NCBI RefSeq assembly: GCF_000614585.1
Contig: NZ_BAKX01000001.1
Span: 124,001-188,000 of the forward strand
Direction: 5' to 3'
Origin: Porphyromonas gingivicanis JCM 15907
GTDB taxonomy: Bacteria; Bacteroidota; Bacteroidia; Bacteroidales; Porphyromonadaceae
DNA: 64,000 nt
Under the pieces are notes generated by a model that saw nothing but the letters and a program-made list of their open reading frames with translations, was not told the DNA's origin and did not search any database. Shown here one piece after another: positions 4,117 through 58,417 of the stretch. Positions within the stretch are counted from its first letter, which is position 1, and every line of letters starts with the position of its first letter. A program made the translations under genes and the position numbers.

Positions 4117-4373
4117 TTGATAAAATTTCTTGACCAGCTCCTTCTCATCTTCTTGGAGATTGTTAGGTGCCAATGTATTTACTGTCTTATTATCTGCACT
4201 CCCCTTGGATTACACTTAAATCTACGCTCTTTTTATTCCCAATCTCAATGCCTTCTAAGGTAGAGTCCTGTAGCCTTGTATTGTTTTCTTAAGATCGCTA
4301 ATAGAGCTCTTTTTGAGATAGCAAGTATTTCTCTGTTTTGAAAGCTCTCTAACCATCTGTATAAACGTTCAAA
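4117..4373. other. Gene-free stretch with a possible coding remnant
   Basis: No intact gene is present. On the minus strand, two short open stretches in different frames (about 4120-4185 and 4187-4270) translate to peptides of normal composition, one containing TLAPNNLQEDEKELVKKFYQ. They could be the decayed end of an old gene. I cannot name a family. Confidence 0.25.
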
Positions 4374-4429
4374 AGGTATGTAGGTTAGAGGCGAAAGGGT
4401 TAATGGTTTTGCCTCTAAAGATTATACCT
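4374..4429. repeat. Nested palindrome, possible member of the dispersed intergenic hairpin element
   Basis: Outer arms AGGTAT (4374-4379) and ATACCT (4424-4429) enclose inner arms TTAGAGGC (4385-4392) and GCCTCTAA (4411-4418). The loop holds GAAAGGGTTAATGGTTTT, which resembles the right half of the element at 45561-45632. It lies about 140 bp upstream of the putative nadB -7 box. Confidence 0.5.
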
Positions 4430-4566
4430 ATTGGTAGGCTTGTTGATTACTTTTTTCTTTCAAGGGGGAAAGAATTGCTCTATACCCTTTGCGGAGAGTC
4501 TCTATGACTCAAAAAGAGAGCATTATATAGCTGTACCAAAAGTCAACAAAGTCTCAAAATAAGATG

Positions 4567-15999: not shown

Positions 16000-16131
16000 T
16001 TCCGTATATACGCAACCAAAATTTCGTATATACAGAAATTTTTTTTCGTATATACAGAAAAAATTTTTCGTATATACAAAAATATTTTTCCGTACGTACG
16101 AAAATTTTCTTGTGTATATGTGGTGTTTTTT
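16000..16131. repeat. Six-unit array phased at exactly 22 bp around GTATATAC
   Basis: Six consecutive 22-bp units start at 16000, 16022, 16044, 16066, 16088 and 16110. The G of the core falls at 16004, 16026, 16048, 16070, 16092 and 16114. Units 2-4 read TTTCGTATATACAGAAA or a close variant, with A/T-rich filler. Unit 5 changes the core to GTACGTAC, keeping it palindromic. Unit 6 is degenerate. The array fills the gap between two convergent genes. It is not a CRISPR, since there are no unique spacers. Confidence 0.85.
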
Positions 16132-21749: not shown

Positions 21750-21820
21750 ATACCATTAACCCCTGAGCGCAAAACCATTAATGTAAACTCTCGAAACGAT
21801 TAGTCCTTTTGCTCCGAACC
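21750..21820. repeat. Divergent copy of the dispersed intergenic element
   Basis: The segment GCAAAACCATTAATGTAAAC followed by CGATTAGTCCTTTTGCTC lines up with the element at 45561-45632 (CAAAACC, GTGCAAAC, then TTAATCCTTTTG). The complementary arms of the other copies are not kept here, so this may be a decayed copy. It lies between divergent sppA and lemA. Confidence 0.45.
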
Positions 21821-21858
21821 TTTATACCTTTGGAAGTATGCCTATCGCTTTATTGTTT

Positions 21859-35419: not shown

Positions 35420-35492
35420 GCTCCCTCTTAAAAGGGGCTATGGTTTCAACAGTTTGCACGGAAGGTTTTGAGCCAAACCATCGTACCTTTTT
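35420..35492 (-). repeat. Dispersed intergenic hairpin element, copy in minus orientation
   Basis: Read on the minus strand this copy contains AAAACCTTCCGTGCAAAC, nearly identical to the loop of the element at 45561-45632. The arms flanking the loop are ATGGTTT and AAACCAT (plus-strand positions 35440-35446 and 35475-35481), self-complementary but different from the arms of the other copy. It lies between the terminators of two convergent genes. Confidence 0.7.
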
Positions 35493-35630
35493 GAGGCAAC
35501 CCTTATACCTTTCGAAAACTTTGTATCGTCTCTTTTGGGAACTCCTTGATAACCTGTTTTTGAAAGTAGTGCAAGTCTCTCTAAAAAGTGACGTAAGATT
35601 TTGAAAAAGTGAGGACAGGTGTATATGAAA

Positions 35631-35661
35631 AGACCCTTTATACTAAAAAGTAAAAGGGTCT
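35631..35661 (-). terminator. Terminator of the LuxR-type regulator gene
   Basis: AGACCCTTT pairs with AAAGGGTCT; the minus-direction continuation is TTTCATAT. It lies about 20 bases after the regulator's stop. Confidence 0.75.
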
Positions 35662-35681
35662 CCTTGTCTTGAGTTTAAAGA

Positions 35682-36281
35682 TTAGGCTTGTATCTCGTCA
35701 ATATTTACCAACTTGTTGACGATAGCATAGATGGTAAGACCGCTTGGACTATGGATTTTTAGCTTCTTTGCAATGTTGCGCCTATGGGTAATTACGGTGT
35801 GAATAGAAATAGAGAGCTTGGAAGCAATCTCTTTGTTTGTAAGTCCCTTGGCAACAAAGGCAACAACATCTTTCTCGCGAGGTGAAAGGAGACGTTCGTC
35901 TTCACTGTCCAATTCTTCCTCTTCTGGAAGGGCTATGGTAGAGAGTATCTGCTGTACAAAGGCCTCGGGTTGCTCTTCGATGCTTAATACAGCATCGTAG
36001 CCTGTCAGGTAGCCAGAGTACATACCATTTACGCATAAGGCTACCAGTTTGCTTCTATGGGTAGACTTCCACTGACCTTCCGCATGAAACCCAAAGATGA
36101 TGGGATTAGCAAGAATAATATCTGGAGAGAAAAAGTTAATTGTGGTACTCAAACTCTCTACATCCATAGTATTGGTTAGCTGTACACGAAATCTATTATT
36201 CCGCTTTAGTATAGCCTCAATGCCTAATCTTATAAAAGGATTAGGTTCTACAATTAATAGCTTGTATACACTCTGTAGCAT
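35682..36281 (-). CDS. LuxR-family response-regulator-like transcription factor
   Basis: This 199-residue protein has a receiver-like N-terminus (LLIVEPNPFIRLGIEAIL), in which the usual acidic pair after the first strand reads EP. A C-terminal LuxR helix-turn-helix follows at about 131-190 (LSPREKDVVAFVAKGLTNKE, IASKLSISIHTVITHRRNIA). The expected phosphoacceptor lies near SPDIILANP, where the aspartate is at the strand start, so phosphorylation is uncertain. It follows the ScdA/RIC-type hemerythrin gene by 68 bp on the same strand, and a -7 box lies in the gap. A role in the same stress response is likely but inferred. Confidence 0.82.
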   Translation of the reverse strand: MLQSVYKLLIVEPNPFIRLGIEAILKRNNRFRVQLTNTMDVESLSTTINFFSPDIILANPIIFGFHAEGQWKSTHRSKLVALCVNGMYSGYLTGYDAVLSIEEQPEAFVQQILSTIALPEEEELDSEDERLLSPREKDVVAFVAKGLTNKEIASKLSISIHTVITHRRNIAKKLKIHSPSGLTIYAIVNKLVNIDEIQA

Positions 36282-36326
36282 AGATTTATCTATTCGTCAA
36301 AATCTGTTTCTTTTCGGTCTGCCCAG

Positions 36327-36334
36327 CAAAAATA
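36327..36334 (-). promoter_or_regulatory. -7 box between the hemerythrin and LuxR genes
   Basis: The minus-strand octamer is TATTTTTG, 45 bases before the LuxR-type ATG. It may allow the regulator to be transcribed alone. Confidence 0.4.
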
Positions 36335-36349
36335 TAAAGAGCTTGGCAC

Positions 36350-37051
36350 TTAGGCATTATTTATCTCCATCTTTCTAATAAGCGGGACAAAGAGGTTATC
36401 TTCGATAAAGTTATGGGTTGCCAAATCTTCTTCGGTAGAAAAAATCTCATGCAATACTGCCGTTAGCCCATAGCCACTATCTCCAGGATAGTATTTAATG
36501 AGGATATTTTTGAGTTCGCTAATTTTAGCCTCTATTTTATCGTGTCTTTTACTAAAGATATCAATGTGGTAATTACTTAAATCCTCTGACTGATTGACCA
36601 ATTTGGTTACGTAGGGGAATACAGTTTTGTCTTCATAGCCCATATGCTTGTGTACCTCATCAACATATTCGTCAAAGAAACGGTTGATGAGAAGCACGAT
36701 ATCTCGAGGTCCACCTTCGATAGCTTTGTGCAACTGCTCTCTGATGAGCGGAAGTCTATAATCTAAGAAATAGTGGTGAGAACGCTTCAAATAATCAATC
36801 AATGCCAGAGGGGAGAGTTGCTCTAAGTCGCTCTTCTCTACAGAAGTAACATGATTTGCTACGGCATTGATTACAGCCAACAGGGTAGGTGTGTGTACAT
36901 TATGTTTGTCGCAAACCTCACGGATAGATTGCTCGCCACAACCTAAAGCTATGCCAAAACGAGTGATTACAAGTAGAAGGTCGTAGTGGTCACAAATGAG
37001 ATCACTCATAAGTGTATCTGCTGTATATCGATAGACTTTATTCTTGTTCAT
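36350..37051 (-). CDS. ScdA/YtfE-like di-iron protein (repair of iron centres)
   Basis: RIC proteins repair iron-sulfur clusters damaged by nitric oxide or peroxide. This one has 233 residues. The N-terminal ScdA_N-like segment reads GIALGCGEQSIREVCDKHNV, where the family normally has a CC pair and here has a single cysteine after LG. The hemerythrin-like HHE part has histidines in KRSHHYFLDYRLPLIREQL, DEVHKHMGYEDKTVFPYV, DIFSKRHD and THNFIEDNLFVPLI, enough for a di-iron site. It has a clear two-box promoter and is followed by the LuxR-type regulator. Confidence 0.85.
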   Translation of the reverse strand: MNKNKVYRYTADTLMSDLICDHYDLLLVITRFGIALGCGEQSIREVCDKHNVHTPTLLAVINAVANHVTSVEKSDLEQLSPLALIDYLKRSHHYFLDYRLPLIREQLHKAIEGGPRDIVLLINRFFDEYVDEVHKHMGYEDKTVFPYVTKLVNQSEDLSNYHIDIFSKRHDKIEAKISELKNILIKYYPGDSGYGLTAVLHEIFSTEEDLATHNFIEDNLFVPLIRKMEINNA

Positions 37052-37077
37052 AGGGTTATTGTTTTATCATTTTCGTG

Positions 37078-37108
37078 CAAAGGTACATAAGCATTAGCAC
37101 TTTAACAA
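37078..37108 (-). promoter_or_regulatory. Promoter of the ScdA/RIC-like gene
   Basis: On the minus strand TTG (37108-37106), a 20-base spacer, then TACCTTTG (37085-37078). It ends 26 bases before the ATG at 37051. Confidence 0.72.
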
Positions 37109-37174
37109 TAAGAAACTATACCTATAACTAATGACCTTTTTCTCTTGCTTTTCTATGCTCTCTACTTCTTTTTC

Positions 37175-37204
37175 TTGTTCGTATCCCTTTTGGTATTACC
37201 TTTG
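37175..37204 (+). promoter_or_regulatory. Bacteroidota promoter upstream of glmS with a long leader
   Basis: TTG at 37175-37177, a 19-base spacer, TACCTTTG at 37197-37204. The glmS ATG lies 224 bases further on. A second -7-like octamer TACCTTTA sits at 37349-37356 without a -33 box. Confidence 0.6.
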
Positions 37205-37428
37205 TAAGCCAACGAGATTACAGACTATCGTAAGTAAGATTAAGGTGTACACCTTTTGAATTGATATAGATGTCGATCTTGTAGAGAGTAAAAAGTAAAG
37301 AGGGTGTTTCTGTACAAAGGGTAATTTTTTCATATCGGGCAAAAGAAATACCTTTACACGAAAGAGAGTTTTTATGAGGGGGCTTACCCCTCAATCTCAC
37401 CTAATAGCATGTTGAAACAGTAAATTGT

Positions 37429-39279
37429 ATGTGTGGCATAGTAGGATATATCGGTCATCAAGAAGCCTATCCGATACTCATTGGAGGATTAAAGCGTTTG
37501 GAGTATAGAGGATACGATAGCGCAGGTATTGCTCTACTCAGTAGTAGTGGAGCTTTGAATGTTTATAAAGAGAAGGGTAAGGTTGTTAATTTAGAGCAAC
37601 GAGCGTCATCTTCTGACTTGACGGGGTCTTTAGGTATAGCCCATACTCGTTGGGCCACTCATGGGGAACCTTGTGAGCGCAATGCTCATCCTCATTACTC
37701 TTTTACAGAGGAACTGGCTATTGTGCATAATGGTATCATTGAGAATTATAGAGAGATAAAAAGTGACTTGGCAGAGAAAGGATACAAGTTTATCAGCGAT
37801 ACAGATACTGAAGTGCTGGTACAGTTAATCGAGTACACAAAGAAAACTTTCGATTTACCTCTCTTTGAGGCCATTCAAAAGGCATTGCAAAACGTTATTG
37901 GAGCTTATGCCATAGCTGTTATAGACAAGACTGTCCCTGAACGTCTTATAGCAGCACGAAAAAGTAGTCCTCTTGTGATAGGGGTTGGGGAGAATCAGAA
38001 GGAGTATTTTATAGCTTCAGACGCTTCTCCAATAGTTTCCTATACGCGTAACGTTATCTTTATAGAAGAGGAGGAAGTGGTCGAGTTGATGCCAGGGCGA
38101 GTTCCTCGTATAGAAACTATTGATAAGCAGGTTGTAGAGCATAACCCTCAAGAGGTAGGTTTCGATATTGGTATGATAGAGAAGGATGGCTATCCTCATT
38201 TCATGCTTAAAGAGATATTCGACCAGCCCCGATGTTTACAAGACTGTATGAAAGGGCGTGTCAACAGTGAGCTACAACAGATACTGCTCTCTTCAATGCT
38301 CGACCATAGAGCTAAACTTGTACAAGCTCGAAGAGTAATTATCTTAGGTTGTGGTACTTCGTGGCATGCAGGGCTTATTGGCAAACAGCTTATCGAAGGG
38401 CTTGCTCGTATCCCAGTGGAGGTTGAATATTCTTCAGAGTTTCGTTACAGAAACCCTGTAATAGAGAAAGATGATCTTGTTATAGCGATTTCTCAATCAG
38501 GAGAAACTGCCGATACTCTCGCTGCTATAAAGTTGGCAAAAGAGCAAGGAGCTTGTATTTACGGAGTGTGTAATGCTATCGGCTCCTCTATAGCAAGAGC
38601 TACAGACACGGGTACCTATATCCATGTTGGTCCAGAGATTGGTGTTGCTTCTACTAAGGCTTTTACGGGACAACTAACAGTCTTGGTAATGCTTGCTCTC
38701 TGTTTAGCAAAGGAGAGGGGAAGTATATCGGACGAAAAGTATAGGGCGTTGGTGCAAGAACTCACCATGATACCCGATAAAATTAGAAAGATATTCAATC
38801 AGAATGACCGCATCAAAGAGGTGTCTAAGATATTTACCTATGCTCATAACTTTATCTATTTGGGGCGAGGTCTTAACTATCCCGTTGCATTGGAAGGGGC
38901 TCTCAAGTTAAAGGAGATATCCTATATTCATGCAGAGGGTTATCCTGCTGCAGAGATGAAGCATGGTCCTATCGCCCTAATTGATGAGGAGATGCCCGTT
39001 GTTGTTATTGCCACAAAAGATGAAATTTATGATAAAGTGGTGAGTAATATACAAGAGATAAAGGCTCGCAAGGGACGCGTTTTGGCGATTGTATCTGAGG
39101 GGGATGAAGAAATTGCAAAGATTACCGACTATACGATAGAGGTGCCACGTACTTTACCCGAACTTGATCCTTTACTTTCAGTGATACCTTTACAGCTTCT
39201 CTCTTATTATATTGCAATCAACAAGGGTAAAGATGTAGATCAACCTCGTAACTTGGCAAAATCTGTTACTGTAGAGTAG
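37429..39279 (+). CDS. glmS: Glutamine-fructose-6-phosphate aminotransferase (isomerising)
   Basis: GlmS makes glucosamine-6-phosphate from fructose-6-phosphate and glutamine, the entry to peptidoglycan and LPS amino sugars. It has 616 residues. The N-terminal nucleophile is Cys2 in MCGIVGYIG, followed by LEYRGYDSAGIA and HTRWATHGEP of the glutaminase domain. Two SIS domains follow, with CGTSWHAGL, ISQSGETADTL and STKAFTGQL. The C-terminal tail KSVTVE is as expected. The leader of about 220 bases has no ribozyme core that I can find. Bax-inhibitor-1 follows 112 bp later. Confidence 0.96.
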   Translation: MCGIVGYIGHQEAYPILIGGLKRLEYRGYDSAGIALLSSSGALNVYKEKGKVVNLEQRASSSDLTGSLGIAHTRWATHGEPCERNAHPHYSFTEELAIVHNGIIENYREIKSDLAEKGYKFISDTDTEVLVQLIEYTKKTFDLPLFEAIQKALQNVIGAYAIAVIDKTVPERLIAARKSSPLVIGVGENQKEYFIASDASPIVSYTRNVIFIEEEEVVELMPGRVPRIETIDKQVVEHNPQEVGFDIGMIEKDGYPHFMLKEIFDQPRCLQDCMKGRVNSELQQILLSSMLDHRAKLVQARRVIILGCGTSWHAGLIGKQLIEGLARIPVEVEYSSEFRYRNPVIEKDDLVIAISQSGETADTLAAIKLAKEQGACIYGVCNAIGSSIARATDTGTYIHVGPEIGVASTKAFTGQLTVLVMLALCLAKERGSISDEKYRALVQELTMIPDKIRKIFNQNDRIKEVSKIFTYAHNFIYLGRGLNYPVALEGALKLKEISYIHAEGYPAAEMKHGPIALIDEEMPVVVIATKDEIYDKVVSNIQEIKARKGRVLAIVSEGDEEIAKITDYTIEVPRTLPELDPLLSVIPLQLLSYYIAINKGKDVDQPRNLAKSVTVE

Positions 39280-39391
39280 TGAACTTTCTTTGTATTGTAT
39301 AAAAAGGCATAGAAGTTGTATATGACTCTACGAGAGGATGACCTCTAACGCTATATAAATAGAAAGATTAAAACAAAAACAATATTTATCT

Positions 39392-40147
39392 ATGAACAAT
39401 TATTGGAACCAAAACAAGCAGACTCCACCCGCTTATGGAGCTTATGAGGTAGATGCTACAAGACCTCAGTATGTGGTTTCTACCGAAGATGTAAACAAAC
39501 TTTTTCGCAATGTTTTTGTGTGGATGACGGCAGCTTTAGGGCTAACAGGAGTAACCAGCTACTTGGTAGCTTTTACACCTCTGTTCTACACTTTGATAAC
39601 AACACCTTTCCTCTTTTGGGGGGTAGTTATAGCGGAGCTAGGATTGGTATTTTTTCTCTCTGCTCGTTTGCATAAAATCTCCTTTATTACTGCCAGCTTA
39701 TGTATGACCATTTATTCTGTTCTTAATGGTCTTACGTTAAGTTTTATATTCGCAGCTTATACGGCATCTTCTATTATTTCGACTTTCTTTATCACTGCAG
39801 GTACTTTTGGGGCAATGGCTCTTATAGGTACTTTCACTAAGAAGGATCTCTCTTCTTGGAGTCGTTACCTCATAATGGGTGTTGTAGGATTGATTATTGC
39901 TTCGGTAGTGAATATGTTCCTTAAGTCATCGGGTTTCGAATGGGTTATCTCTATCGTTGGAGTGCTTATTTTTACTGTGCTAACAGCTGTTGACACCAAT
40001 AAGATTAAGAATATGCTACGAGAGTATGATGGTGTATTGGATGGTGAAAGTTTGAGGAAAATAGCTCTTATGGGTTCTTTACAGCTTTATCTTGACTTTA
40101 TAAATCTGTTCTTGTATCTCCTTCGCTTCTTGGGTAGAAGAAATTAA
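39392..40147 (+). CDS. Bax inhibitor-1 (YccA/BI-1) family membrane protein
   Basis: BI-1 homologues are seven-helix membrane proteins; bacterial ones may act as pH-sensitive calcium leak channels or interact with FtsH. This one has 251 residues and a hydrophilic, Gln/Asn/Pro-rich N-terminus of about 40. Seven hydrophobic segments follow. The C-terminal pair of family aspartates is visible in FTVLTAVDTNKIK and LQLYLDFINLFLYLLRFLGR, the latter being the family signature. It is transcribed after glmS; a strong bidirectional hairpin lies downstream. Confidence 0.9.
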   Translation: MNNYWNQNKQTPPAYGAYEVDATRPQYVVSTEDVNKLFRNVFVWMTAALGLTGVTSYLVAFTPLFYTLITTPFLFWGVVIAELGLVFFLSARLHKISFITASLCMTIYSVLNGLTLSFIFAAYTASSIISTFFITAGTFGAMALIGTFTKKDLSSWSRYLIMGVVGLIIASVVNMFLKSSGFEWVISIVGVLIFTVLTAVDTNKIKNMLREYDGVLDGESLRKIALMGSLQLYLDFINLFLYLLRFLGRRN

Positions 40148-40238
40148 TAGTCCTATATAATTTATCCTCCTCACAGAAGAGAGAGGTACAAGTCTGTGGC
40201 TATTACGCTTACTTGTGTAGACATATTTGCAAAAACAG

Positions 40239-40272
40239 AAAAGGGAGTTGTCCGTATGGCAACTCCCTTTTT
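40239..40272. terminator. Bidirectional terminator between BI-1 and the DUF4252 cassette
   Basis: AAAAGGGAGTTG pairs with CAACTCCCTTTT around a 9-base loop, with A-rich left and T-rich right flanks. It can end transcription from both convergent units. Confidence 0.85.
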
Positions 40273-40408
40273 GGAAAAAGAAACTAACTAAAAATGATGA
40301 ATGAAAAAAGAAACGTTTGTTATGTCTGCAAGGGAGCAATAACGACTCAATACTTAGAACTTTTTTAGAGGAAGGCTCTAGGTATTTTTGCTCTCTCTGG
40401 GGAGTTTG

Positions 40409-40957
40409 TTAGTTGGCACGCTTTCCCTTTTTACCCTGTCCGCGATTAGGGGTTTCGGTAGCTTGCATGGCAGCTTCAATTTGTTTACGGGTAAAGTGTC
40501 CTATGAAGGATATAGCCACATACTCTTCGGGTTCATCAACCAGAAGGTATAGGTCGTGTGCTTCATTACCTTTCATCTTCGCTACAAAACGCATAGTACG
40601 TTGTCCTTCTTTGACGAAGAAGAGCTGTTCGTACTGCTTTTGTGAAGGTTTGAGTATCGGAGCAAACATAGAGCGAATTAAGGATATGTTTTGAGTATCC
40701 GAAGCTGTAAAAATATAGACAGAGCTAATGGATTGGATTAGACCCTGCAAAGAAGGAGAACCTCCATCTTTGCTCCCAATACGGAGAGTTGATTGCGATA
40801 GCATTGAAGGAGATAGATAAACCACTGTGATGCCATCCGTTTGCATTAAACGGTCAAAGTCTATATCCTTATTATCCTGTGCCAATAATTGATTGGAGGC
40901 AAACAGAGTTAGTAGTGTAGCCAATATAGAGGCTATGATTAAGCGCGGACTATTCAT
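40409..40957 (-). CDS. DUF4252 family protein, exported
   Basis: This 182-residue protein has a signal peptide (LIIASILATLLTLFASNQLLAQ). The mature domain has the pattern GITVVYLSPSML, then SISSVYIFTA, MRFVAKMKGNEAHDLYLLVD and EYVAISFIGHFTRKQIE, matching DUF4252. No catalytic motif is seen, and the C-terminus is basic (RGQGKKGKRAN). It is the last gene of a four-gene unit whose first gene is also DUF4252 and whose middle genes encode an ECF sigma factor and a probable anti-sigma factor. A periplasmic signal-sensing role is inference. Confidence 0.78.
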   Translation of the reverse strand: MNSPRLIIASILATLLTLFASNQLLAQDNKDIDFDRLMQTDGITVVYLSPSMLSQSTLRIGSKDGGSPSLQGLIQSISSVYIFTASDTQNISLIRSMFAPILKPSQKQYEQLFFVKEGQRTMRFVAKMKGNEAHDLYLLVDEPEEYVAISFIGHFTRKQIEAAMQATETPNRGQGKKGKRAN

Positions 40958-40971
40958 AATATCTATTTATC

Positions 40972-41520
40972 TCAATTTAATTCGTCGTTTGATATAGTTC
41001 TAATGTTTCCCATCCGTAGTTCATGTTCCATTAGAGGTTCTAATTGTTGATAAGAAGCCTCGATGGCTTCTGATGCGTCGTTTATGGCAGACTGGGCCTT
41101 AGTGTAGTTGGTATAACCAGACTCTAAACAATCATTGAGCAGAGAGAAAGCTCGTTCTGCATGTATATCTACTTCCTCTTGGGCGATATAGGTATTGTTT
41201 CTGAAGGAAAGCTCTTCCGAAGGGTTGCGTAGCAATCCAATTAATCCGAGAGTCAAGGCAAGAGGTAAAGCAGCCGCAATGGCATATTTCTTTATGGTAG
41301 AGCTACTGTACCATTTATTCTTTCTTTTTACAAGTAGCGTCTCTCTCTGTATCTGTTGTGCTCCGATGAAAAGCATTTCGACCACCTTTAGATCTGCTTG
41401 ATAGATACTATTGGATGGTTCATCTAATAGATGAAGATATAACATAAGCTCCTCTTCGGGCGAGGTTTCTCCAGAGTAAAATTTCTCTAATAGCCGAGGG
41501 AGTTGTTCTTTTGTATTCAT
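40972..41520 (-). CDS. Probable anti-sigma factor, single-pass membrane protein
   Basis: This 182-residue protein has no signal peptide. Residues about 1-70 are cytoplasmic and helical (LPRLLEKFYSGETSPEEELM is similar to N-termini of anti-sigma proteins). One transmembrane helix lies at about 77-97 (AIAAALPLALTLGLIGLL), and the C-terminal 80 residues are periplasmic and helical. It lies 24 bp after the ECF sigma gene on the same strand. The topology and position fit an anti-sigma factor, but no ZAS zinc motif is seen, so the function is inferred from context. Confidence 0.65.
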   Translation of the reverse strand: MNTKEQLPRLLEKFYSGETSPEEELMLYLHLLDEPSNSIYQADLKVVEMLFIGAQQIQRETLLVKRKNKWYSSSTIKKYAIAAALPLALTLGLIGLLRNPSEELSFRNNTYIAQEEVDIHAERAFSLLNDCLESGYTNYTKAQSAINDASEAIEASYQQLEPLMEHELRMGNIRTISNDELN

Positions 41521-41544
41521 TATATTGAATCGATACGCTGTTTT

Positions 41545-42057
41545 CTAATTCTCTTTCTCGAATAGATTTCGAGCTTCTTTTCTCAATCGAGAGAGCGCAC
41601 TACGCACGGTAGACTCTTGTAGTCCTAATTGCTCTGCTGTCTCTCCGTTGGAAAGCATCTCATAATGCCTAAGGCGAAAGATGCTTTTCTGTGGTTCTTT
41701 CAGTGAATTAACCCAATCTTTTAATCTCTCTTCGGAGCTTTTGCCTACCAGTTCTTCATAGGGGTTGGCAGAGGGGTCTATGCTGTTTTGGAGTGTCCAC
41801 TCGGCTACTTCACGATTTTCTCGAAGCCTTTCGGATGCACTTTTGAGCTTGTCTAAACAGCGATTGCGTGCTAAGCGTATTACGTAGGCTTGAGGCGATA
41901 CAATCTCGTCCAAAGAAGCTCTTTGCTCCCAGAGTTTGAGGTATATATCCTGTGTAGTGTCAGCAGCCATTTCTTGGTCAGAGAGTAGTGCTACACACAC
42001 CGAAAGGATCACCTTTCGTAGAGGCAAATATGTGCTGTTAAATGTGGTAGCATCCAT
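41545..42057 (-). CDS. ECF-type RNA polymerase sigma factor
   Basis: This is a 170-residue alternative sigma factor. Region 2 covers about residues 25-85 (ADTTQDIYLKLWEQRASLDE, then YVIRLARNRCLDKLKS), and region 4 covers about 115-165 (LKEPQKSIFRLRHYEMLSNG, TAEQLGLQESTVRSALSRLR). Region 3 is absent, as in ECF factors. It is the second gene of the unit DUF4252 - sigma - anti-sigma-like - DUF4252, with gaps of 12, 24 and 14 bp. Autoregulation is likely by analogy; I could not identify its promoter motif. Confidence 0.9.
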   Translation of the reverse strand: MDATTFNSTYLPLRKVILSVCVALLSDQEMAADTTQDIYLKLWEQRASLDEIVSPQAYVIRLARNRCLDKLKSASERLRENREVAEWTLQNSIDPSANPYEELVGKSSEERLKDWVNSLKEPQKSIFRLRHYEMLSNGETAEQLGLQESTVRSALSRLRKEARNLFEKEN

Positions 42058-42069
42058 TGAAAGAAGGTG

Positions 42070-42615
42070 TTATTTTTGCTGTTCGGGTGTTACTTGAACA
42101 TGACTTTTTATGCCAAAGAGTCCCTTTAGGCAAATAGCATTGTATTCATTATCTGCTGTGGATATGATGTAGAAAGCTCGATTTTTGTCTTCTTCGCTTC
42201 CGTGCGCATAGACACGTACTGTCTCTCCATCTTCCTTAACGAACGTTATTAACTCGCTTCCAACAAAAGAAGTTGTTTCAAAAAGCTTTTTAAGCAACTT
42301 TTGTTTTTTGGGCGGTAGTTGCTCCATAGATTCTACGGAAATGACAGACAGACTGCCCGATAGTTGAGCCGAAGGGTCTAAGGACTTCTGATCTCCTAAT
42401 AGAGAGATGCCACTTAGAATCGAACTTTTCTCTTGTAAAAAACCTGTTTTGAAGAGTGTGTTGAAATCTTCTGGTGTTAGGTGTACCACATCTATCCCCT
42501 CTATCTGCGCACACTTTGCAAAAAGAGAGGGGAGGGAGAGCTCTTTTGTTCCTTGTGCATTGACTTGTACCAAGCCCACTACACTAATTAGGGTAAGTAG
42601 TAAAAGACGAATCAT
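42070..42615 (-). CDS. DUF4252 family protein, exported, first gene of the sigma cassette
   Basis: This 181-residue protein has a signal peptide (LLLLTLISVVGLVQVNAQ). Its mature domain is organised like the other DUF4252 protein at 40.4 kb: GIDVVHLTPEDF, a middle region with LSGSLSVISVESM, LITFVKEDGETVRVYAHG and a C-terminal EYNAICLKGLFG. The two are clearly diverged paralogues. It begins the cassette; 12 bp separate it from the sigma factor. No typical -7 box was found upstream, as expected if the cassette is read by its own sigma factor. Confidence 0.78.
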   Translation of the reverse strand: MIRLLLLTLISVVGLVQVNAQGTKELSLPSLFAKCAQIEGIDVVHLTPEDFNTLFKTGFLQEKSSILSGISLLGDQKSLDPSAQLSGSLSVISVESMEQLPPKKQKLLKKLFETTSFVGSELITFVKEDGETVRVYAHGSEEDKNRAFYIISTADNEYNAICLKGLFGIKSHVQVTPEQQK

Positions 42616-42924
42616 ACATCAATTGTGCTAATTTGTATTTGTCGGTAATTGCTTAAGCTATATATCGTATAGCGGAGCAATTGGTCCTACACCTAATTAG
42701 ACGATTGATTTTTTCTTTTGTTGCAAAGAAGAAATAATTTTCTCCGAAAGAGTGAAATATATTAGTTGGGAGCGAGGTCAGAGATGACGTTATAGATGGA
42801 AACCTTTGCATAATAAATCGTCTCTCCTCTCTTTTGATGCTTGAACTTGTTCATATACATGGGTATATTTTATTGTGTTTACGCTACCATTTTCTTTTTT
42901 TATCGTGTTCAATTCTTTATACTA
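42616..42924. other. Gene-free region upstream of the sigma cassette
   Basis: The stretch is A/T-rich with poly-T runs and no plausible gene. It leads into the 21-bp array at 42925-43008. Confidence 0.4.
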
Positions 42925-43008
42925 AGATTGAGTATAAACACACCAAGGTTGAGTATGTATATATTCAATCTAAGTATATGTATATATAGATTGCGTATAG
43001 AGAATAGG
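42925..43008. repeat. Four-unit array phased at exactly 21 bp around GTATA
   Basis: Units start at 42925, 42946, 42967 and 42988. The core GTATA/GTATG begins at 42932, 42953, 42974 and 42995. Units 1, 2 and 4 share AGrTTG before the core; unit 3 has AATCTA. Less clear units may extend upstream. It lies about 310 bp upstream of the sigma cassette, in a gap of about 670 bp. The core and phasing resemble the 22-bp array at 16.0 kb. Confidence 0.7.
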
Positions 43009-43288
43009 AGGTGTGTAGAATGAAAACTGTGCACGTCTACCAATGAATCTGAACACGTCCGAATAGAAAAAGAAGTGCGGGAAACGAGCTATTATGCAAG
43101 GGTTTCAGATGGATGTTTGGTGTGAGACTCTGTCCTTTAATAGCGACTGTTACATAATGCTGTATTCGTTGGGTTATTATCGATATTCGGGCTCAGTCTC
43201 GTTCATTTTTACGTTCCCTTCGACTTTATCCCAAAGTCTTGCAGGATGTTCCTTAAAAATAGGTGTCTTGGAGTGCGTGCAATAACCT
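43009..43288. other. Gene-free region with a possible short coding remnant
   Basis: No intact gene is present. On the minus strand two overlapping short frames at about 43195-43285 have coding-like composition (one includes HPARLWDKVEGNVKMNETEP) but no start or family likeness. They could be the remains of a gene downstream of the M16 peptidase. Confidence 0.3.
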
Positions 43289-44533
43289 CTAATAATACAG
43301 GAGTGTGAGAAGCTGTTCGGGAACGAAAAGTTTGCGAGCCGTCTCTTGTATCATAGAGGCGGTTATAGTGTTAAGGCGCTCTTCTATGGTAGAGAGGCTG
43401 TCATACTTTCGGTAGAAGAGAAGGCTTTTACCCATAGAGAGGAAAGCTGTTTCTCGAATGTCGGCAGCAATGGCGAGTTGCCCCATTATTTGACGTTTGG
43501 CGGCTGCTAATTCTTTGTCTGATATAGGCTCTGCACAGAGACGATCCAACTCTTGAAAAACAAGAGCTTTGGCTGATTCTCTATCTTTATGAGCACAGCC
43601 AAAATAGATGGTGAAGACACCTGCATTGGAGTAGGGGGTATAGTTACTATCGACGGAATAGACGTAGCCTTTCTCTTCACGCAGACTCATGTTGAGACGA
43701 GAGTTCATACCCGGTCCTCCTAATATGTTGTTGAGAAGTGTGGTAACAAGTCGCTCCTCCTGATGCATAGAGTAAGCGTACCCTCCTATTATGCAGTGCG
43801 TTTGATAGGTGTTGAATTTGTGTGAAAGATAGGTCGTTTTTGGCAGATCTCCAACAGTGTGTAGCAGAGATGTGGTGCGTAAAGGCAAGGCTTTTTCTAT
43901 GGAGTACGAAGAGAAGTAATCATCACAAAAGTCCAATATATACTCTATATCTACTTGTCCTCGGAGGCAGAGTACCATATTTTCAGGACGGTAATGTTGA
44001 TGTATAAACTTTCGAGCCGATAGAGAACTTATACGCTTTACCGAAGCAACAGTACCCAAAATGTTGTGCCCCAGAGAGGAACCTCTGAAAAGAAGATCTT
44101 CAAATTCGTCGAATATTTGCTCGGAAGGAGAGTCTTTATAGCTGTTTATTTCTTCGATGATTACAGACTTTTCCCGTTCGAGTTCTTCCTCGGGGATACG
44201 GCTATGTAGTACTACATCTGTAAGTAAATGGAGCATACGATGCAAGTATTGCTCTTTGAAAGCAGCGTAAACGAAAGTCTCCTCTTTGGTAGTATAGGCG
44301 TTGATATCTGCTCCTACCTCTTCGGCTCTTTGTATAATATGCTTCGAGGAGCGGAGGCGAGTGCCTTTGAACATCATGTGTTCTACCAAATGCGCCATCC
44401 CAAAGTAGCGTTGTGGATCATTTTGAGCTCCAACGCGTACTATGTATCCTGCGTAGGTGATAGCACTTTTGTCAGGATAGTGGGCGATAGTGAGCCCCGA
44501 AGAGTGTTGATATAATTCGTAATGCTCTTGCAT
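43289..44533 (-). CDS. M16 family zinc metallopeptidase
   Basis: This is a 414-residue peptidase of the processing-peptidase type. The inverted zinc motif HLVEH lies at about 48-52 in GMAHLVEHMMFKGT, and the downstream glutamate region is ELEREKSVIIEEINSYKD. GGPGMNSRLNMSLREEKGYVYSV is the second-domain signature. There is no signal peptide, so it is probably cytoplasmic. It stands alone on the minus strand, with no clear promoter box. Confidence 0.92.
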   Translation of the reverse strand: MQEHYELYQHSSGLTIAHYPDKSAITYAGYIVRVGAQNDPQRYFGMAHLVEHMMFKGTRLRSSKHIIQRAEEVGADINAYTTKEETFVYAAFKEQYLHRMLHLLTDVVLHSRIPEEELEREKSVIIEEINSYKDSPSEQIFDEFEDLLFRGSSLGHNILGTVASVKRISSLSARKFIHQHYRPENMVLCLRGQVDIEYILDFCDDYFSSYSIEKALPLRTTSLLHTVGDLPKTTYLSHKFNTYQTHCIIGGYAYSMHQEERLVTTLLNNILGGPGMNSRLNMSLREEKGYVYSVDSNYTPYSNAGVFTIYFGCAHKDRESAKALVFQELDRLCAEPISDKELAAAKRQIMGQLAIAADIRETAFLSMGKSLLFYRKYDSLSTIEERLNTITASMIQETARKLFVPEQLLTLLYY

Positions 44534-44763
44534 AGCAGTGAGGATGAATGAAATCTTTGTCAGAAAAGTTTTTTATCCTTATTTGAAAGAATTGAGGAGT
44601 ACTCTCTTTAAGTTTCTTGTGGATATTTTTGACCATTCTCTAAGTGGCTACGGTTGGATCTTGTGGACGAACAGTGTCTTGTTTCAGATTCAAGTTCTGT
44701 TGCCTAATTGCGTAGGCATTCTATAATGCTCTTAAGGAGAAAGCAAAGTTCTATTTAATAGAA

Positions 44764-44802
44764 AAATCGCTACCCCTTCTGAAAAAGAAAAGGTAGCGAC
44801 TT
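44764..44802 (-). terminator. Terminator of rpsP
   Basis: TCGCTACC pairs with GGTAGCGA around a 17-base loop; both flanks are A/T-rich, with a T run in the minus direction. It lies about 80 bases after the rpsP stop. Confidence 0.75.
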
Positions 44803-44881
44803 TTATTATTGGCATTTTAGCAGTTAGACATTCAGCTTTTCTTCGTAAAGAAAGTATGTCTATGCTACACTTTGTAGAGTG

Positions 44882-45454
44882 TTACTCTGCTTGTGGAGCT
44901 TCTGCTTCTGCTGTTTCTTGCGCTTCTTCTGCAGGAGTTTCGGTAGCTTCTTCTGCATTCAAAGCTGCTTCTTCTTCAGCTTTAGCCTTGGCTTCTGCAG
45001 CACGCTTTTCAGCTAATTCTGTTGCTTTAGCCTTGTTAATTTCTTGTTCTGCTGCAAGACGCGCCTTAGCCTCTTCACGTTTCTTCGCATCGCGAGATGC
45101 AACTACTTCGTTGATTTTGTCCATTTTGCTCTTGCGCCACTCTTCGAAACGACGATCTGCAGTTGCTTGATCGAAAGCACCCTTCTTAACACCTTCGTTG
45201 AGGTGCTTTTTGAGGAGTACTCCTTCGCGAGAGAGGAGGCTACGAACCGTGTCGGTAGGTATAGCACCTACGCCCAACCAATAAAGAGCTCTTTCGAAAT
45301 TCAAATCTACTGAAGCAGGATTTGTGTTCGGATTATAAGAACCTATCCTTTCAATAAATCGTCCATCTCGTGGAGCCCTGCTGTCTGCGATAACGATCTT
45401 GTAGAAGGCGTAGCCTTTGTGACCGTGACGCTGCAATCTAATCTTAGTTGCCAT
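44882..45454 (-). CDS. rpsP: 30S ribosomal protein S16 with long Ala/Glu-rich tail
   Basis: S16 is a primary binder in 30S assembly. Residues 1 to about 80 are the ordinary S16 domain ([40 protein letters not shown], then [20 protein letters not shown]). The protein is 190 residues, about 100 longer than the classical form. The extra part first has a helical basic segment and then a highly charged tail of Lys/Ala/Glu repeats ([12 protein letters not shown]), which should be disordered or a single helix. Extended S16 tails are common in Bacteroidota. A -7 box lies 63 bases upstream. Confidence 0.94.
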
Positions 45455-45517
45455 TTGTTACGTTTGAATTAATAAAACTCTTTTCTTGTTTCTGCGTGCC
45501 CTTGCACACATTGGTTG

Positions 45518-45525
45518 CAAAGGTA
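45518..45525 (-). promoter_or_regulatory. -7 box upstream of rpsP
   Basis: The minus-strand octamer is TACCTTTG, 63 bases before the rpsP ATG. A -33 TTG is not seen. Confidence 0.45.
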
Positions 45526-45560
45526 TATATTTTTTCTCGGATACCATTATACCTATTGAC

Positions 45561-45632
45561 AAAAAGGTATAACCCTTTTGAGCAAAACCATCCGTGCAAA
45601 CTCTTAGAAAGGGTTAATCCTTTTGGAAGAGC
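45561..45632. repeat. Dispersed intergenic hairpin element
   Basis: Arms AACCCTTT (45571-45578) and AAAGGGTT (45608-45615) enclose a 29-base loop containing CAAAACCATCCGTGCAAAC. An AGGTAT hexamer precedes, with ATACCT a few bases further upstream. A second copy at 35420-35492 in the opposite orientation keeps the loop but has different, still complementary arms. It lies between rpsP and a decayed gene. Confidence 0.75.
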
Positions 45633-58214: not shown

Positions 58215-58417
58215 AGAAACCTAAGAGACTCCTATACAAAGGAGTTCCCTTTGTAGTTCCTCAACATACCTATAATGTAAAGCCATAAAAGTATTAATTC
58301 TTACAAGTGAAAGCATTATACCTTTCTGAAAGGTGATTGTAGGAAATACTTCACCAGTTTTCTGTATGTAGAGAGAGGTTTCTCTACGCCGTAGAATCCC
58401 ATTCGAAAGAGTAAAAA
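58215..58417. other. Gene-free stretch between convergent genes
   Basis: It contains an 8-bp perfect hairpin, TACAAAGG with CCTTTGTA (58235-58255), about 20 bases after the LRR gene stop but without a T run. Otherwise I see nothing. Confidence 0.4.

What the first reader, a model, noticed from the sequence alone, without database searches (positions are those of the whole stretch)
35420..45632. Dispersed intergenic hairpin element with compensatory arm changes
The copies at 45561-45632 and 35420-35492 (opposite strand) share the loop block AAAACCwTCCGTGCAAACTsTT and the flanks AAAAAGGTA and CCTTTT. The arms differ (AACCCTTT/AAAGGGTT versus ATGGTTT/AAACCAT) yet each pair is self-complementary, and the loops are 29 and 28 bases. 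That pattern implies selection for pairing in RNA or DNA rather than for arm sequence. A weaker copy lies at 21750-21820 and a related palindrome at 4374-4429. All four are intergenic. It could be a MITE-like or REP-like element, or a small structured RNA.
Basis: partly seen in the sequence, partly recalled or inferred. Interest (0 to 1): 0.7.

Follow-up and report, generated by a model that had tools for sequence, protein, structure and literature searches.

The report
Four-site DNA arrays linked to HU-like proteins
What looked like an RNA hairpin is one of roughly a hundred short sites between genes in this bacterium, most of them built of exactly four look-alike 22-letter DNA modules; arrays of the same design stand beside genes for HU-like DNA-binding proteins in related bacteria, which points to an undescribed protein-docking system along the chromosome.

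Summary
The repeat is real; the hairpin reading is not supported. The "loop" is one unit of a 22-bp-period array and the "arms" are half-sites of neighbouring units. In the host genome 73 of 101 collected arrays have exactly four units, with sharp edges. Over those 73, no arm pairing is enriched, and RNAalifold finds no pair in 71. What is kept is a weak/strong pattern, WWWSS-N6-SSWWW-N6, more than letters. No target-site duplications. Arrays share on average 49% of letters.

Arrays of the same design with other letters occur in other Bacteroidales. They are tied to HU-HIG genes (PF18291): 32 of 68 have a 21-23-bp tandem array upstream, 2 of 68 downstream; presumed ordinary HU genes, 0 of 19. 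Array spacing follows protein subfamily. In the sister species P. circumdentaria a different four-unit element (21-bp period, about 92 bp) is the dispersed one, and one copy precedes an HU-HIG gene. The window holds three array classes, each resembling the array before an HU-HIG gene of its own genome. Best reading: phased binding arrays for HU-HIG proteins. Binding is inferred, not shown.

The parts
4350..4431 (.).
   Evidence: E 3.3e-10
21752..21831 (.).
   Evidence: E 2e-13
35431..35512 (.). 22-bp-class array, four units (seed copy)
   Evidence: E 3.5e-10
45541..45623 (.). 22-bp-class array, four units, the third spacing 23 bp (seed copy)
   Evidence: units read; one search matches 45519-45591 (+) and 45563-45627 (-), E 6.8e-10
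58260..58325 (.).
   Evidence: (E 8.3e-7)
42913..43004 (.). 21-bp-class element, four units, 92 bp, of the class that is dispersed in P. circumdentaria; same class precedes HU-HIG gene L359 of the host genome
   Evidence: (E 4.6e-15)
16000..16119 (.). third class: 22-bp array of GTATATAC-centred palindromes, resembling the array before HU-HIG gene L358 (and more loosely L360) of the host genome

Best explanation
Shown: the elements are arrays, usually exactly four units at 22-bp spacing. Each unit is a 16-bp quasi-palindrome whose A/T versus G/C pattern is kept while letters vary. Tandem arrays at 21-23-bp spacing, with sequences that differ from gene to gene, stand beside genes of HU-HIG proteins (PF18291, HU/IHF superfamily) in Bacteroidales, and the spacing follows protein subfamily. 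Inferred: each unit docks one HU-HIG dimer; a spacing of about two helical turns sets successive dimers on one face of the DNA, so four can bind cooperatively and bend or coat some 85 bp. A protein that reads the minor groove, as HU and IHF do (established knowledge), senses A/T versus G/C more than letters, which would explain the weak/strong conservation. At its own promoter an array would serve autoregulation; dispersed over some hundred gene gaps it would act as a fixed chromosomal address (nucleoid organisation or regional control) rather than a single-promoter switch, since arrays also lie between convergent genes. For the window's 22-bp class the likeliest partner known to me is the MANKPLQ-type subfamily (host gene G000:C33:334464-334802).
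For: Architecture: spacing 22/44/66 in 123 of 128 neighbouring same-strand pairs; 73 of 101 arrays with four units; score drops from 9.3-9.5 to 5.9-6.0 of 10 just outside units 1-4; in 464 kb chosen without regard to hits, 27 places at period 22 and none at 18-21, 23-26 (score 37+ of 40). Weak/strong pattern persists in the 141 register neighbours that do not resemble the seed (A/T at columns 1-3 .74-.87, 4-5 .27-.28, 12-13 .19-.31, 14-16 .72-.80). HU-HIG link: arrays with period 21-23/44-46 upstream of 32 of 68 HU-HIG genes, downstream of 2 of 68; by selection, 24 of 37 that I picked and 8 of 31 best-per-genome. Other families: 15 of 43 upstream, 12 of 40 downstream; presumed ordinary HU genes 0 of 19 and 0 of 19. 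Subfamily and spacing: MANKPLQ cluster 11 of 11 arrays at 22 bp, the two MAKYI-QEMPD clusters 8 of 8 at 21 bp, permutation p 0.0014 over 50 arrays. Weak/strong 22-bp arrays precede MANKPLQ-type genes in G000, G003, G004, G005, G007, G008. Sister species: its own dispersed class precedes HU-HIG gene L365; the counterpart L359 keeps that class in the host, where it is rare.
Against: No binding data. The host's MANKPLQ gene L356 is 97% identical in DNA to a P. circumdentaria copy and lies beside an integrase, so it is mobile and its tie to the chromosomal arrays is circumstantial. Of the seven host HU-HIG genes I examined, only L356 has an array of the window's main class before it. About half of HU-HIG genes show no array at my threshold (36 of 68), and outside Porphyromonadaceae arrays are downstream as often as upstream. 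Some protein clusters have mixed spacings (cluster 0: 21, 22 and 23; cluster 3: 22 and 23), and five of the eight 21-bp arrays are paralogues of one genome. All 38 family genomes have PF18291 matches, so presence of the gene does not predict dispersed arrays.
Confidence: 0.62

Rival explanations
1. Arrays for another DNA-binding protein (a repressor or an unknown nucleoid protein), which merely happen to lie near HU-HIG genes because it regulates them.
For: Binding is not shown; arrays of one class also precede integrase genes (L245, L315), so a common regulator of mobile elements could bind them.
Against: Letters differ from one HU-HIG gene to the next and spacing follows the HU-HIG subfamily, which a single outside regulator would not give; 0 of 19 presumed ordinary HU genes have arrays.
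Confidence: 0.2
2. A mobile or formerly mobile repeat (MITE-like, moved by an unknown transposase) whose four-unit form is the transposing unit.
For: High copy number, constant size, partly symmetric ends in the 21-bp class (TTCTTTAT..ATAAAGAA), and presence in one sister species but not the other at many gaps.
Against: No direct-repeat excess at the flanks (73 and 13 elements); no near-identical copies in the host; arrays of different class tend to recur in matching gaps of the two species.
Confidence: 0.1
3. Structured RNA or a hairpin under selection for pairing.
For: Two copies with different but self-complementary arms; single copies fold better than shuffles, up to z -5.4.
Against: No pairing enrichment over 73 arrays; no consensus pair; no Rfam match in the window.
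Confidence: 0.03
4. A neutral minisatellite produced by replication slippage.
For: Long near-identical runs in G028 and G004 (L276 holds 16 copies of one 16-mer); one orthologous gap differs by exactly one unit, four against five.
Against: In the host, units of one array are hardly more alike than units of different arrays (0.530 against 0.518 permuted, z 1.8); four units in 73 of 101; weak/strong pattern held while letters change.
Confidence: 0.05

Closest known systems
HU-HIG proteins (PF18291; TIGR01201 HU_rel) of Bacteroidetes
   Same: The genes beside the arrays belong to this family.
   Different: I found no paper in the open library that gives them DNA sites or arrays. A survey of HU superfamily clades by Burroughs and colleagues (2017) is recalled, not seen. 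No solved structure matched three HU-HIG sequences.
RIB/RIP elements of E. coli (repetitive intergenic sequences that bind IHF; recalled, not searched)
   Same: Dispersed intergenic palindromic elements bound by an HU/IHF-superfamily protein.
   Different: Those are REP-based with one IHF site; these are arrays of usually four phased sites, with letters that change between sister species.
BldC arrays in Streptomyces (PMC5859096, abstract and outline seen)
   Same: A small DNA-binding protein oligomerises on direct repeats of variable number at promoters; the closest 'works like' model.
   Different: MerR-like fold, asymmetric head-to-tail binding; no dispersed fixed four-unit element.
BrickBuilt MITE/minisatellite of P. 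gingivalis (PMC4596501; abstract, passages and part 1 of 2 of section 7 read)
   Same: Intergenic tandem repeats in a Porphyromonas. The paper mentions in passing 22-nt tandem repeats of strain W83 without sequence or place; P. gingivalis arrays seen here may be those.
   Different: 23-nt unit AGAYCATARTATCCTCTCRTRTG and IS5-like ends GAGACCTTTGCA; unlike any unit here.

Membership tests
MITE | Target-site duplication | tested here: not met
   Flanking direct repeats of 4-9 bp no commoner than with permuted flanks, 73 host arrays and 13 of the 21-bp class
MITE | Terminal inverted repeats | tested here: inconclusive
   21-bp class has ends TTCTTTAT and ATAAAGAA; 22-bp class only a preference for AAAGGTAT at both ends (26 and 17 of 73)
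MITE | Copies recently derived from one another | tested here: not met
   Best other host copy at most 78% identical; not measured over the whole P. circumdentaria set
Structured RNA / REP-type hairpin | Co-varying stem | tested here: not met
BrickBuilt | 23-nt unit and IS5-like ends | tested here: not met
   Unit and ends compared by eye; period is 22 or 21
Slippage minisatellite | Units of one array alike, number free | tested here: not met
   Host arrays. Not tested for the long G028 and G004 arrays, which look like slippage
HU-HIG-linked arrays (proposed) | Tandem 21-23-bp arrays beside HU-HIG genes more often than at control places | tested here: met
   32 of 68 upstream, 2 of 68 downstream; presumed ordinary HU genes 0 of 19
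HU-HIG-linked arrays (proposed) | Window class matches an array before an HU-HIG gene of the same genome | tested here: met
   AAASS class: three units before L356; 21-bp class: L359; GTATATAC class: L358
HU-HIG-linked arrays (proposed) | Protein binds the array | not testable with these tools
   Needs EMSA, footprinting or ChIP-seq

The most novel reading that the evidence does not exclude
Bacteroidales carry a set of HU-HIG proteins, each with its own phased palindrome array. In some lineages one paralogue's array has spread to about a hundred gene gaps as a four-site chromosomal address, and sister species differ in which paralogue's array is spread, partly in the same gaps: a genome-wide protein-DNA addressing system that re-codes its letters while keeping geometry and the weak/strong pattern.
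Probability: 0.4. Interest if true: 0.92.

Novelty: new variant of a known kind. Interest (0 to 1): 0.8.

Why it matters
HU-family proteins are usually seen as loosely specific packagers of DNA, and HU-HIG proteins are numerous in some Bacteroidales (up to 17 or 18 PF18291 matches per genome; weak matches include ordinary HU). I found no DNA site for them in the papers searched. If the arrays are their sites, the sites of a large protein family can be read from genome sequence and tested directly. The swap of dispersed array class between two close species, with array spacing following protein subfamily, would be an unusual case of protein-DNA co-evolution on a chromosome scale, and it could explain the 22-nt tandem repeats mentioned for P. 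gingivalis.

Tried and rejected
Hairpin or RNA: not supported. MITE with duplications: not supported. BrickBuilt: other sequence. Promoter or terminator element: 23 arrays in called gaps of the unbiased sample split -- 8, -+ 7, ++ 5, +- 3, against intergenic-length fractions .35.20.31.14, so no clear orientation bias with these small numbers. Slippage minisatellite: no concerted evolution in the host. Plasmid iterons, ParB-type centromeres and Tn7/Mu end sites came to mind from memory because of the 22-bp spacing; not tested. Exact-pattern scans: genome contigs 42 stretches with one match each, of which only P. circumdentaria is a Porphyromonas (the tool says records of the window's own genome may be left out); viral contigs 15; I took these as chance and did not examine them further.

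Rows dropped and caveats: the 45541 element (1-bp slip, miscalled) was left out of alignment A1, which holds 71 of the 73. Three HU-HIG loci known beforehand to have arrays (L363, L376, L386) were left out of the test but are. One search used wrong orientation for minus-strand loci and is superseded. The 68 genes include near-duplicate upstream regions (L366/L372, L368/L369/L373, L370/L374, L342/L347), and one (L338) with a miscalled start. One upstream region is a run of N and is not among its 15. The 'ordinary HU' controls are weak PF18291 matches of about 90-120 aa, not checked with PF00216. In one search, four of the eleven 92-bp windows were placed by eye; model searches then found matches of mostly 86-93 bp. 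In one search some register neighbours were themselves seed-like; one search repeats it without them. My P. circumdentaria sample skipped C25:1-12000 and C17:100001-112000, which hold known 22-bp-class arrays, so its count of 0 is low; one search lists 26 matches in that genome. One search found six of seven P. circumdentaria array loci matched to host array loci, but the host stretches searched were enriched for arrays, so this overstates shared position. The unbiased samples of the two species shared only 11 orthologous gaps, too few to use.
Full report
What is there. That block is one unit of a 22-bp-period array: in the host genome the same-strand distance between neighbouring unit matches is 22 (88 times), 44 (27) or 66 (8), and anything else 5 times. 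I collected 101 clusters from 464 kb chosen without regard to hits (the window plus 20 evenly placed 20-kb stretches) and from 73 stretches of about 3 kb round search hits. Extending each in register gave four units in 73, three in 16, five in 9, and six, seven and one in one each (the rule used a half-site list made by eye and allows some mismatch). A check by weak/strong score alone agrees: units 1-4 score 9.3-9.5 of 10, the units just outside 6.0 and 5.9, others 5.5-5.9. In the unbiased 464 kb, four-unit weak/strong arrays scoring 37 or more of 40 occur at 27 places for period 22 and at none for periods 18-21 and 23-26.

What is conserved. Seed units were found by letters. Among their register neighbours 22 bp away, the 141 that do not resemble the seed (more than 4 mismatches, either strand; array-edge misses included) still show A/T at columns 1-3 in .80/.87/.74, at 4-5 in .28/.27, at 12-13 in .19/.31 and at 14-16 in .80/.80/.72 (with all 264 neighbours .86-.92.15-.19.14-.18.80-.89). 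Between collected units 77% of the differences at these ten columns are A-T or G-C exchanges, against 29% in the spacer (that unit set was letter-selected). Arrays differ greatly from each other: mean identity 0.49, best other copy 60-78%. 71 arrays align with only one row out of register. I count 33 distinct places in the 464 kb at E 0.001 with model R1 (rows), so the genome should hold on the order of 120-150.

Not a hairpin. RNAalifold predicts no pair.

Where they lie. Of 100 arrays of three or more units, 17 overlapped an ORF of 70 aa or more in my crude calls; those printed were 72-174 aa long. The 96 with both neighbours called lie in gaps of all four orientations (-- 31, -+ 28, ++ 22, +- 15). 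In the unbiased sample 27 arrays by the definition: 23 in called gaps, roughly as intergenic length predicts, 4 outside called gaps; 21 of 84 gaps of 250 bp or more hold one.

Other species. The letter pattern itself is nearly confined to the host and one sister: 149 and 15 matches at up to one mismatch (backward controls 1 and 1), the other 24 of 26 genus genomes 0-4 each. The sister, G003, I take to be P. circumdentaria ATCC 51356 because a contig of the same length, 180202, bears that name. With profile models the architecture appears in 16 of 38 family genomes at E 0.001 (R2) and in 13 of 295 order genomes at E 0.0001, the host included, with other letters: AAACGTCTAGACGTTT, AAACCACTAGTAGTTT and AAAGCTATATAGCTTT in G006 (P. 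gingivalis ATCC 33277, a name I give from its length, 2,354,886 bp, from memory), AAAGCAATAAAGCTTT in G004, AAAGCACTAAAGGTTT 16 times in one G028 locus, AAACCTAACGTGGTTT in G310. Some of the weaker hits (L252, L274, L275, L310, L311) show no convincing array.

The HU-HIG link. I called the nearest ORFs of 31 array loci from other genomes and scanned ten of these proteins: six, chosen because they looked HU-like, are HU-HIG, E 6.9e-34 to 2.5e-13; in four the array is upstream of the gene, in two (L303, L309) downstream. The rest were not scanned. PF18291 matches occur in all 38 family genomes, 1-17 each at E 1e-5, ordinary HU among the weak ones. Letter-free test: within 450 bp upstream of 68 HU-HIG genes 36 show tandem self-similarity and 32 of these have period 21-23 or 44-46; within 450 bp downstream 7 and 2. 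Of the 37 genes that I had picked, mostly in genomes with arrays, 24 upstream and 0 downstream; of 31 best-per-genome genes and L112, 8 and 2. In five genomes of other families 15 of 43 upstream and 12 of 40 downstream; presumed ordinary HU genes 0 of 19 and 0 of 19. The weak/strong pattern of the window's class (28 or more of 30 over three units) occurs upstream of 8 of 40 HU-HIG genes and downstream of 0 of 40; three of the eight were known beforehand. Consensus units of 33 upstream arrays are more dyad-symmetric than their shuffles on average (5.9 against 4.8 of 7), individually significant in 11. Clustering the proteins at 38% identity, arrays of the MANKPLQ cluster are at 22 bp in 11 of 11 and those of the two MAKYI-QEMPD clusters at 21 bp in 8 of 8, permutation p 0.0014 over 50 arrays; other clusters are mixed and several members are paralogues of one genome, so the p value is generous.

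Sister species swap. P. circumdentaria holds another dispersed element: four units at 21-bp spacing, 11 copies aligned without a gap over 92 columns, ends TTCTTTAT and ATAAAGAA. Model R3 gives 150 strand matches there (the scoring limit) and 6 in the host, 0-6 in the other 24 genus genomes. In samples: 14 places in 400 kb of P. circumdentaria and one in 464 kb of the host, the latter in this window; the 22-bp class gives 0 and 33 (see the sampling caveat in tried and rejected). One P. circumdentaria copy lies directly before HU-HIG gene L365, and the counterpart gene L359 of the host has the same class before it. Of 13 host arrays with one flanking gene found in the P. circumdentaria sample, 8 (7 of 12 distinct gaps) have a 21-bp-class element within 800 bp of the matching gene end, against 11 of 57 sampled gaps of 250 bp or more; in several of the 13 the two flanking genes map to different places, so synteny is broken. 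This suggests re-coding in place; it does not prove it. A 22-bp-class counterpart is visible to me in only one of the 13 (index 12). One aligned orthologous gap shows gain or loss of exactly one 22-bp unit.

Three classes in one window. Five arrays of the 22-bp AAASS class, one 21-bp-class element (42913-43004) and one 22-bp array of GTATATAC palindromes (16000-16119). They resemble the arrays before HU-HIG genes L356, L359 and L358 of the same genome.

Limits. No binding evidence; literature searched only in the open library; genes are crude ORF calls; the host assembly is 88.5% complete with 5.4% contamination; the L356 gene lies beside an integrase and is 97% identical in DNA to its P. circumdentaria copy, hence mobile.

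Noticed in passing
L356 (G000:C33:333000-336500) and L363 (G003:C30): An HU-HIG gene beside a tyrosine integrase, 97% identical over 702 bp of upstream DNA in two species whose orthologous proteins were mostly 65-98% identical: a recently shared mobile element with its own 22-bp array.
   Followed up: partly
L245:257-1486 and L315:1591-2793: Integrase genes (PF00589 with an arm-binding domain) preceded by AAAGCTTAGG-type arrays like those before some HU-HIG genes; the proteins might regulate mobile-element integrases.
   Followed up: partly
window 41545-42615 and 42913-43004: The 21-bp-class element lies about 300 bp upstream of an operon whose second gene is an ECF-type sigma factor (Pfam Sigma70_r2/r4).
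   Followed up: no
L425-L463 (G048, G060, G066, G067) with L396-L400: In other Bacteroidales families 21-22-bp arrays lie downstream of HU-HIG genes (12 of 40) about as often as upstream (15 of 43).
   Followed up: no
L276 (G028:C5), L263 (G004:C17): Long near-identical 22-bp runs (16 copies of one 16-mer in L276), unlike the four-unit arrays of the host; they look like recent tandem amplification.
   Followed up: no
L389 (G010:C1:328300-331300): A 22-bp array GAAAGTAATATAACATTC of at least five units before an HU-HIG gene, with letters outside the weak/strong pattern of the window's class.
   Followed up: no
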